This document shows positions 20,603 to 37,778 of a stretch of 64,000 nt of DNA, piece after piece. Position 1 is the first letter of the stretch; every line of letters starts with the position of its first letter. Location: assembly GCF_964019385.1 (NCBI RefSeq), contig NC_088654.1, forward strand, positions 14,445,600-14,509,599, given 5' to 3'. Source of the DNA: Sycon ciliatum (Eukaryota; Porifera; Calcarea; Leucosolenida; Sycettidae). The position numbers were made by a program, and so were the translations under genes. The notes below the pieces were generated by a model. That model made no database searches. It had not been told where the DNA came from and saw only the letters and a program-made list of their open reading frames with translations.

Positions 20603-23600
20603 ATGGCCGTGGCTTCCTTTCCCGCGGCTGTTGTCTCCATGGCGGAGCAGAACCGTCCCAACGCGGCGGTGTCGCTGGTGATTCTCTGTGACTCGACGTC
20701 GAGAATTCTGCTGTGGCGTCCAACCGATGGAACCACAGCAGATCAAGACCGTGCCTGGACAACCCCGTGCACTCAACTGCACGGAGACCAAGACTGCGTT
20801 CTGGCATCGCGGAAGCTCTTGAGGGTGAGGCTGTTGGAGGCATTTTGCCGGCTGTGATTTGCTGTCGGCACACGTTCTTTGTCTGCGTTTGTCACAAATT
20901 CTCTTTTTTTGTGAAGACAGAATGACGTCGTAAAGTGGCAGTATATGCCAGGGAAGCGTTGTGTCGTGTTACAGTGTATTGTTCTTGTTGGTCAGGCAGT
21001 TACAGTAGGTCTACGAGGAGCAGCGTGTGGTTTCCGTACAGTGCGTGCCCATTTTGCCCACTCACTCAGTTTGTCAATTTCTGTACGTGCAATATTGCTT
21101 GGACCAAGTAAATAGTTGATCTACAGTGATTTTCGCCGACATGACTGACGACGTAAAGTCGTGGTAAAATCACGCAAAATACGTCATTTTTCAGTGATAC
21201 CCATGCCGCCCCAATGTACCAATAAGTCACATTCGTTCTAAGTAATTTCGTTTACCCCCTGCTGACGCGATGCGACATGTCAGCATATGGGTTGGGTCCA
21301 GAGTGATGATGCAGCACGGCGGGCCTCCACCAACCATTCGGACTCTGCGTCACTGCTGCTCTTACGCAAGGTGCACTCCAGTTCCCTTGCCATGTCCGGC
21401 CTAGCGCCGCAACGGATGCGGTCCGTAGCTAGGCAACTATCCGTCACTCAGAACACAATGCTAAACTGTACAGATAGTACTGTATGAATCCTGTAATAGC
21501 TAGCCATAGGGGGGGGGGGGGGCACATTTACCACATGACCATAATACGAGACAGCCATGTTGGTTCCCACTCCATGTGCGACTATAGTATATTATTACAC
21601 ACACGCTCACACACACGCACCCTGGTGCGGCACTCTTAGTCGAGCCGAAGTGGTCTCTCGGGACTTCCACGACCTCTGTTTTATATTATATATTTTTATT
21701 TACATTGTATTCCGTCTCCTACAGGGCCTTCACCCGGGCCTGGTCAACTCTTTCAAACTCACCGGCGTACTGCGCCTCAACTACGACGCCATCCGGTTGC
21801 CAATGGCGACCGAGCGGCGGCAGCAGCAAGACTGTCAGCTGGGAGACGGCGGAGGTGGTGCGGGTGCTGGCCCGACGACCTGCGCGTCCGTGTGTCTGCT
21901 GGTGCGTGGCGACTCCACCACGCTGGCTACTGCCGAGGTAAGCAAGTGACATTAATTTTATACAAACCAATTGAAACCATGTATTGGAGTAGTGCAGCCC
22001 GTATTTGAAGGATTGCACATACTGTATAAGCAGAAATATTCGTCTGGAATTTAATTTCGTCTTTTTCGTCCAAGGAACCTTTGGGCTAAATTAAGTGCCG
22101 GACTAATGTCGATTTGTCCAGCTTTTCTATACACTATTATGATCCATGGACGAAATTTTCAACCGGACGAACTCCTTTTCTTTGCAGTTGGACGAAATTT
22201 TCTGCCTCTACAGTACTGTATTTCCCAAGTCCCAAGGTCCGTTGCATGTTCAGTTTTATAAAACAGGACCATTGTATTTCACTTCAGTAATAAGATCCTT
22301 CTTTGCAGCTATTGTAAGTCGCACACTCCGTAAGGTCAAGCAACGGGGTGCGACGTACAATTAATTTATTGCTGAAGTGATACTCAATGGTCCTACATGT
22401 ATATTATAAACCTGAACATGCTCCGGACATTGGTTATTCCAATACTCTCTCTCTCTCTTTCACTCTCTCTTTCTTTCTCCCTCATAGACAACTGTTGAGG
22501 TTGCGAATGGTTGCGCCAGGCCACATTCGTTTCGCATTGGCTGGTTCTCGGTGTCGGACTTCCTTGCCGCCAGTCCATCAATGGAGGGTGTGGGATTCTC
22601 TGGAGATGCCCGCGTTGCCATCCAACAAGCTTCCGAAGGTAAGCAGTTTTGCTGTGCACCTACGCATGTGCGCGTGTGGTCACATACACACCCGCACACA
22701 CACACACACACACACACACACACACACACACACACACACACACACACACAATCCTTTGCTCTCCACCCGAGTCTAACCTACGCAAGTGATGAGCTGTCAG
22801 AATTATTTTGTTTGTTCATTTTTTTGCTCCTTCAGGTATGCACTGTCTGCCGATGTCGTCTCTCAGCCTGCTGCACTCCAACGTGCTCGTGTCGCGCACG
22901 TCCTCGTCCTCGTTCGACGATCCCGGCGAGGACGACGCACTGCGGGATGTCGTTGCCACGGCCTCTGGGACGGCGGGGTCGGGAGCGCAGGGCGAGAAGA
23001 TCGGCACGGCCGTCACACCGCGGCGTATGCCGGCGGTGACGATCACGTGTGCCACTCCGGACCAGGGCGGCGGCTTTCCCGCGTGCCCGCTGATCGCCGA
23101 CTGTGCTGGCGTGACGCCCGCCCAGGTCAACTTCCTCGTCAAGTCCGGCTACGGGCTGAAAGGTGAGCGTTGTGCGGTGTTGTGCATGTGGTATATGAAC
23201 ATGGTACTGTTGGAGTCCCTTTTAAAATACGCGCCGGTACACTGACGTTTCAGTGTAGCGTACCTCCACGCGGTCGTAAAATGTGTACTTCATAGCCAAT
23301 GGACTGTTCAGTAGTCTGTGGCGGCTAATGCCGGCAGAAAAATTGGCAGAATTTGGTACTTTTTCACTCTCTTTCTTTCTAACTGTCTCGTGTTCACATT
23401 AGGATTTCGCCTACCGGATTTTTGTTCTCTGTCTATCTGTGTGTGTGTGTGTGCGCGCGCGCGCGTGTGTGTGTGTGTGTGTGTGTCTCTCTCTCTCTCT
23501 CTCTCTCTCTCTCTCTCTCTCTCTCTTACTCTCTCTCTCTCTCTTACTCTCTCTCTCTCTCTCTTACTCTCTCTCTCTCTCTCTCTCTCTCTCTCTCTCT

Positions 23601-37778: not shown

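What the first reader, a model, noticed from the sequence alone, without database searches (positions are those of the whole stretch)
20603..37778. PPP phosphatase with an EF-hand region in front of the catalytic domain
The assembled 990-residue protein has an EF-hand (394-405) and a degenerate partner, a basic low-complexity linker, then a full PPP domain. Known calcium-linked PPPs differ: PPEF/RdgC carries EF-hands after the catalytic domain, and calcineurin uses a separate EF-hand subunit. The usual NDRG-type segment before the RAH motif is also replaced by [11 protein letters not shown]. It may be a phosphatase class lost from vertebrates.
Basis: partly seen in the sequence, partly recalled or inferred. 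Interest (0 to 1): 0.75.

Follow-up and report, generated by a model that had tools for sequence, protein, structure and literature searches.

The report
Animal EF-hand Bsu1-like protein phosphatase
An animal gene appears to encode one protein that joins a calcium-sensing EF-hand module to a protein-phosphatase engine, a combination described before in some single-celled relatives of animals rather than a wholly new enzyme class.

Summary
A 17-exon gene on the + strand (20603-37778) gives 959 residues: an EF-hand module at about 305-405 with one canonical loop (391-402), a basic low-complexity linker, then a complete PPP catalytic domain. Pfam gives Metallophos 8.5e-29 and an EF-hand pair at 3e-6 to 6e-5, the latter below its cut-off. 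The gene is single copy in a 538-Mb animal genome. It is not PPEF/RdgC: the EF-hands precede the catalytic domain, and sisterhood to a recalled RdgC is rejected (p 0.005). Calcineurin A's spacing and tail are absent. The catalytic domain is closest to BSU1 (40-41% identity) and shares a four-residue insert with it; trees do not resolve that placement. Kerk et al. 2021 (PMC8249667) already describe Kelch-less, EF-hand Bsu1 phosphatases in choanoflagellates, an apusozoan, a fungus and a stramenopile. Best reading: an animal member of that kind, a single-chain, calcium-linked Ser/Thr phosphatase. Activity and calcium response are inferred; loss from vertebrates is plausible but untested.

The parts
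20603..20824 (+). exon 1 (ATG; aa 1-74), unknown N-terminal region
   Evidence: phase 0, donor GTGAGG; no Pfam match in aa 1-214 at E<=10
21725..21937 (+). exon 2 (aa 75-145)
22488..22638 (+). exon 3 (aa 146-196)
22836..23162 (+). exon 4 (aa 196-305)
23664..23787 (+). exon 5 (aa 305-346), start of the EF-hand module; acceptor context weak
24285..24458 (+). exon 6 (aa 346-404): degenerate EF loop 349-360 and canonical EF loop 391-402 ([12 protein letters not shown])
25464..25626 (+). exon 7 (aa 404-458); its end lies in a 27-base repeat that repeats the donor site
26310..26621 (+). exon 8 (aa 459-562): basic, Gly/Ser-rich linker
31480..31665 (+). exon 9 (aa 563-624) after a 4.9-kb intron
32121..32340 (+). 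exon 10 (aa 625-698): stretch before the catalytic motifs
   Evidence: STPPase_N tail match 0.0027, below cut-off
33896..34026 (+). exon 11 (aa 698-741): GDIHGN, GDYVDRG
34288..34394 (+). exon 12 (aa 742-777): RGNHE
34865..34967 (+). exon 13 (aa 777-811): holds the four-residue insert shared with BSU1 (GEHLGEEIW / GESYGFEAW)
35253..35395 (+). exon 14 (aa 812-859): HGG, WSDP
36014..36106 (+). exon 15 (aa 859-890): loop [11 protein letters not shown], arginine kept
36652..36736 (+). exon 16 (aa 890-918): RAHE
37653..37778 (+). exon 17 (aa 919-959, stop): FSSSHYC; the protein ends 24 residues later

Best explanation
It is an animal member of the Kelch-less, EF-hand-bearing Bsu1-type PPP phosphatases: a single-chain Ser/Thr protein phosphatase. 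Shown here: the gene model, the catalytic motifs, one canonical EF loop plus a degenerate one, single copy in an animal genome, and closest catalytic similarity to BSU1 with one shared insert. Inferred: that the chain is one protein in the cell, that it is catalytically active, that the canonical EF loop binds calcium, and that calcium binding in the N-terminal module repositions the linker and so switches the phosphatase in cis, as calcineurin B does in trans (recalled) and as PPEF's C-terminal EF-hands are thought to do.
For: 17-exon model with consistent phases and GT-AG introns; stop control. Pfam Metallophos 8.5e-29; EF-hand_7 3.1e-6 to 6.0e-5. PDB: BSU1 (9tp7) gives the best single stretch, 178.5 bits, of the five matches shown as alignments; calcineurin A and PP1 stretches there score 144-159, apart from a second calcineurin stretch of 58. 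Identity in alignment A1: BSU1 41%, PP1 38, CaN 36, PP2A 34, PP5 31. Spacing RGNHE to LP is 36 residues in the window protein and BSU1 and 32, 33, 35 or 37 in the 13 other rows. The EF region beats all 1,000 shuffles against recalled calcineurin B (z 7.5), calmodulin (6.7) and NCS-1 (6.5). Published precedent: PMC8249667 sections 8 and 9. Single copy: residues 1-560 match only the window locus among 28 matches (only the best candidates are scored). Animal genome: 55 Wnt-family matches against 0 of 14 prokaryote controls (that Wnt is animal-specific is recalled).
Against: The trees do not show a clade with BSU1. With 15 rows the window sits unsupported beside calcineurins and L034 (68/53), and window+BSU1 costs 7.9 log units (p-AU 0.17). 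With 12 rows and another alignment the BSU1 pairing appears at only 66/67. The branch is very long (2.1-2.8). By whole-sequence score the first PDB match is a calcineurin chain (9b9g, 205 bits in two stretches), not BSU1. Other motif spacings do not agree with BSU1: HGG-WSDP 35 against 30, WSDP-RAHE 50 against 39, GDxHG-GDxVDRG 27 against 29. The EF match is below Pfam's cut-off, only one loop looks able to bind calcium, and PDB matches of that region are no better than E 0.049. No EF-hand Bsu1 sequence was available, and the sections of Kerk 2021 that I read do not say on which side of the catalytic domain their EF hands lie. No transcript evidence joins exons 1-8 to 9-17.
Confidence: 0.68

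Rival explanations
1. It is a fast-evolving offshoot of the calcineurin catalytic line that fused with its own EF-hand subunit, so that EF module and catalytic domain are a calcineurin B-A fusion.
For: The EF region scores best against calcineurin B of five references tried and weakly matches fungal calcineurin B in PDB (E 0.07, where hippocalcin ranks first at 0.049); a calcineurin chain ranks first by whole-sequence score for the catalytic domain; the 15-row tree puts it beside calcineurins and L034 (68/53).
Against: Calcineurin's six extra residues between RAHE and FSAPNY are absent (17 residues against 23 in all five calcineurin rows); the protein ends 24 residues after SSSHYC, leaving no room for the calcineurin-B-binding helix and autoinhibitory tail (those features recalled); the RGNHE-LP spacing matches BSU1, not calcineurin. 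The calcineurin B alignment covers only the last EF loop and what follows.
Confidence: 0.12
2. Two neighbouring genes: an EF-hand protein (exons 1-8) and a PPP phosphatase (exons 9-17), wrongly joined.
For: The 4.9-kb intron between exons 8 and 9 holds at least one mobile-element-like frame on the - strand (weak match); no transcript data.
Against: Exon 8 ends in a good donor without a stop, and exon 9 begins with a good acceptor in phase and without a start codon at its head; the same combination is published for other eukaryotes.
Confidence: 0.08
3. It is PPEF/RdgC with rearranged domains.
For: Calcium-linked PPP in an animal; a wider window+PP5+RdgC grouping was not rejected (p 0.225).
Against: EF-hands lie before, not after, the catalytic domain; window+RdgC (recalled sequence) rejected, p 0.005; PP5+RdgC split from the rest at 100/100 in that tree.
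Confidence: 0.03

Closest known systems
EF-hand Bsu1-type PPPs without Kelch repeats (Kerk et al. 2021, PMC8249667)
   Same: Bsu1-like catalytic domain, EF hands, no Kelch repeat
   Different: Reported in choanoflagellates, an apusozoan, a fungus and a stramenopile; no animal named for this set in the sections I read; position of their EF hands not stated there; no sequence available for direct comparison
BSU1/BSL/PPKL (plants, green algae, alveolates)
   Same: BSU1 is the closest catalytic domain by identity and best single PDB stretch shown; shares the four-residue insert
   Different: They carry an N-terminal Kelch propeller; this has no Kelch match
Calcineurin (PP2B, A and B subunits)
   Same: EF-hand control of a PPP; the EF module scores best against calcineurin B of five references
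   Different: One chain here, without calcineurin A's insert or tail
PPEF/RdgC
   Same: EF-hands and PPP on one chain
   Different: EF-hands in the C-terminal domain (PMC1885993, passages); falls with PP5 in the tree
Apicomplexan EFPP
   Same: PPP with an EF-hand
   Different: Relationship not tested; known to me only from passages of PMC4094981 and PMC8785970

Membership tests
PPP phosphatase superfamily | GDxHG, GDxVDRG, RGNHE, HGG and RxH motifs with metal ligands, catalytic His and the two clamp arginines | tested here: met
   residue roles recalled and from PMC8249667
Bsu1 type | catalytic domain closest to BSU1 | tested here: met
   highest identity of five and best single stretch of the five PDB matches shown; by whole-sequence score a calcineurin chain with two stretches ranks first
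Bsu1 type | insert between RGNHE and LPLAA (my own criterion, from one BSU1 sequence) | tested here: met
   36 residues in window and BSU1 only, of 15 rows
Bsu1 type | clade with BSU1 in a tree | tested here: inconclusive
   not recovered but not rejected, p 0.17; recovered at 66/67
Kelch PPKL/BSL | N-terminal Kelch repeats | tested here: not met
   no Kelch match in 959 residues at E<=1
EF-hand Bsu1 subgroup (Kerk 2021) | EF hands on the same chain, no Kelch | tested here: met
   EF profile below Pfam's cut-off; one chain rests on the gene model
EF-hand Bsu1 subgroup (Kerk 2021) | groups with the published members | not testable with these tools
   no sequences of those species held; supplements not available
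PPEF/RdgC | EF-hands after the catalytic domain | tested here: not met
   feature from PMC1885993
PPEF/RdgC | catalytic domain sister to RdgC | tested here: not met
   rejected p 0.005, with a recalled, unverified RdgC sequence
Calcineurin A | calcineurin insert before FSAPNY and tail with B-binding helix | tested here: not met
   17 against 23 residues; protein ends 24 residues after SSSHYC

The most novel reading that the evidence does not exclude
A third animal calcium phosphatase: a single-chain enzyme in which a calcineurin-B/NCS-like EF-hand module regulates a Bsu1-type phosphatase in cis, inherited from the ancestor of animals and choanoflagellates, kept in at least one animal lineage and lost on the way to vertebrates.
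Probability: 0.4. Interest if true: 0.6.

Novelty: new member of a known kind. Interest (0 to 1): 0.4.

Why it matters
Animal calcium-dependent PPP signalling is usually described as calcineurin plus PPEF/RdgC (recalled). An animal gene of the EF-hand Bsu1 kind would extend a group reported from single-celled relatives into animals, and would offer a one-chain enzyme in which EF-hand control can be tested without a separate subunit. Because the kind is already in print, this is an extension of range and not a new class.

Tried and rejected
N-terminal region: I suspected a degenerate Nudix-like fold. No Pfam match at E<=10 for residues 1-214, no PDB match better than E 0.95, and alignment scores to two recalled Nudix proteins no better than shuffles (289 and 227 of 500 shuffles as good). 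Rejected; the region stays unidentified. Residues 215 to about 277 were searched only inside longer queries.

A tree with a bacterial outgroup joined the two longest branches and was set aside; rebuilt without it and with a recalled RdgC. Clade tests (15 rows): window+BSU1 p 0.172; +calcineurins 0.0698; +calcineurins+L034 already in the tree at 68/53; +RdgC 0.0051; +RdgC+PP5 0.225; +L034 0.108; +PP2A 0.075; +BSU1+PP1s 0.148. Of (12 rows; RdgC, viral L001 and L034 left out): window+BSU1 in the tree at 66/67; +calcineurins 0.398; +PP5 0.328; +PP1s 0.167. Only RdgC is rejected.

Relatives elsewhere: three scans of viral contigs (none; 9 loci; 98 relatives, 80 kept) and one of genome contigs (19 loci). 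Apart from L001 (the same contig as L068), which matched over residues 19-291 of the query, the listed matches cover parts of the domain. I read the frames of only L001 and L010: a 359-residue PPP and a 533-residue frame of a distant phosphoesterase. The architecture of the others was not examined.

Literature: seven searches. In their listings (titles, abstract starts; 20 of 124 and 10 of 13) I saw no paper about this kind in an animal. I read sections 8 and 9 of PMC8249667 and passages of PMC1885993, PMC2175518, PMC8249667, PMC10214084, PMC2559854, PMC4094981 and PMC8785970. Supplements of Kerk 2021 were not seen.

RdgC and BSU1 searches of the own genome did not complete, so whether this genome has PPEF is unknown.

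Full report
The gene. On the + strand, 17 exons from 20603 to 37778 give a 2,880-base coding sequence and 959 residues. All 16 introns are GT-AG, the phases agree, and no stop falls inside; 2,000 random concatenates of 17 pieces of the same lengths had on average 37 stops and never fewer than 18. GC at third codon positions is 0.68 against 0.47 in the introns. Weak points are the acceptor of exon 5, the donor of exon 7 (inside a short repeat that copies the donor) and the 4.9-kb intron between exons 8 and 9, where a small missed exon cannot be excluded.

The genome. The window lies in a 538-Mb genome of 313 contigs. The genome has 55 Wnt-family matches, about 21 separate places by my own grouping, against none in 14 prokaryote controls; since Wnt genes are animal genes (recalled), it is an animal. 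I do not know the species; the size of the Wnt set makes me think of a calcareous sponge, but that is a guess from memory. The whole protein searched against this genome finds residues 1-560 only in the window; the matches elsewhere lie within residues 669-956, the catalytic domain (28 matches in all; only the best candidates are scored). The gene is single copy as far as that search shows.

The protein. Residues 1-214 match nothing in Pfam at E<=10 and nothing in PDB better than E 0.95. About residues 305-405 form an EF-hand module: Pfam EF-hand_7 covers 338-403 with E 6.0e-5 on the whole protein and 3.1e-6 on a fragment, both under Pfam's curated cut-off. One loop (391-402, [12 protein letters not shown]) fits the canonical EF rule (recalled): oxygen-bearing residues at 1, 3, 5 and 9, glycine at 6, glutamate at 12. 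The loop before it (349-360) is degenerate. Against shuffles the module scores z 7.5 with calcineurin B, 6.7 with calmodulin, 6.5 with NCS-1, 5.0 with the L034 tail and 3.6 with the RdgC tail (four of the five references recalled); the calcineurin B alignment covers the last loop and what follows. In PDB the best match of this region is hippocalcin at E 0.049, with fungal calcineurin B at 0.07. A basic, Gly/Ser-rich linker follows. The catalytic domain (Metallophos 8.5e-29, 694-913) has the PPP motifs. The arginine of the loop before RAHE is kept, so both arginines of the clamp described in PMC8249667 are present.

Which PPP. BSU1 gives the best single stretch (178.5 bits) of the five PDB matches shown, although a calcineurin chain with two stretches ranks first by whole-sequence score (205 bits) in the table of 60 of 92 matches. 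Identities in alignment A1 run from 41% (BSU1) through 38, 36 and 34 to 31% (PP5). Between RGNHE and LP there are 36 residues in the window protein and BSU1, and 32, 33, 35 or 37 in the 13 other rows; the extra residues align as GEHLGEEIW and GESYGFEAW. Against this, three other spacings differ between window and BSU1 (27/29, 35/30, 50/39). Calcineurin's extra six residues before FSAPNY are absent, and the chain ends soon after. Trees do not settle the place. In the 15-row tree PP5+RdgC split from all others at 100/100 and the window sits on a long branch in the remainder; window+RdgC is rejected (p 0.005), while window+BSU1 (0.17), +calcineurin (0.07), +PP2A (0.075) and +PP5+RdgC (0.225) are not. 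A 12-row tree on another alignment pairs window and BSU1 at 66/67. So 'not RdgC's sister' is tested, with a recalled RdgC; 'Bsu1 type' rests on similarity and one shared insert, judged against a single BSU1 sequence.

What is known. Kerk et al. [quoted passage not shown] That is the combination seen here. Apicomplexans also have an EF-hand PPP, EFPP (passages in PMC4094981 and PMC8785970). PPEF/RdgC carry EF-hands in the C-terminal domain (PMC1885993, passages). No animal was named for the EF-hand Bsu1 set in the sections I read, and I saw no title or abstract start on it in the listings of seven searches; unnamed database entries may exist.

How it most likely works. Established knowledge of the family (recalled) gives the chemistry: two metal ions, an activated water and a two-arginine clamp on phosphoserine or phosphothreonine. 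Inferred: calcium at the canonical EF loop changes the N-terminal module and, through the linker, the access or localisation of the catalytic domain, so that the enzyme is controlled within its own chain as calcineurin B controls calcineurin A. Nothing here shows activity, calcium binding or regulation.

Verdict. It is best filed, provisionally, as an animal member of a known kind, interesting for its range and for possible one-chain calcium control.

Noticed in passing
L034 (G000:C4:40117299-40120883, - strand): An intronless 825-residue frame in the same genome: a PPP whose catalytic domain is split by a long low-complexity insert (180 residues between GDIHG and GDYVDRG) and which ends in a good EF-hand pair (EF-hand_7 3.9e-11). 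It groups with calcineurins at 94/91, so it may be a second unusual calcium-linked PPP, with EF-hands after the domain.
   Followed up: partly
L029-L033: Three calcineurin-A-like genes, a PP5 and a PP1-like gene lie in single open frames of 351-511 residues in an animal genome whose window gene has 17 exons: possibly retro-copies or intron loss.
   Followed up: no
25601-25760: A 27-base repeat with small changes copies the exon-7 donor site several times in frame (donor-like sites at 25627, 25654, 25681, 25723); use of different copies would vary the linker length by nine residues or more.
   Followed up: partly
20102-20603: The phosphatase gene and a cation-efflux (CDF) gene on the - strand (Cation_efflux 3.5e-15; first ATG of that frame at 20102) start about 500 bases apart, head to head: a possible shared promoter.
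   Followed up: no
27806-28315 (-) and 5775-7223 (-): A frame in the large intron with a weak viral alkaline exonuclease match (5.4e-4, below cut-off) and a reverse-transcriptase frame (RVT_1 5.2e-34), both likely mobile elements.
   Followed up: no
12397-14805 (+): An 802-residue open frame with a laminin G domain (1.1e-7), a long Thr/Ser/Pro-rich stretch and, by eye, a transmembrane segment near its end: perhaps a mucin-like surface protein.
   Followed up: no
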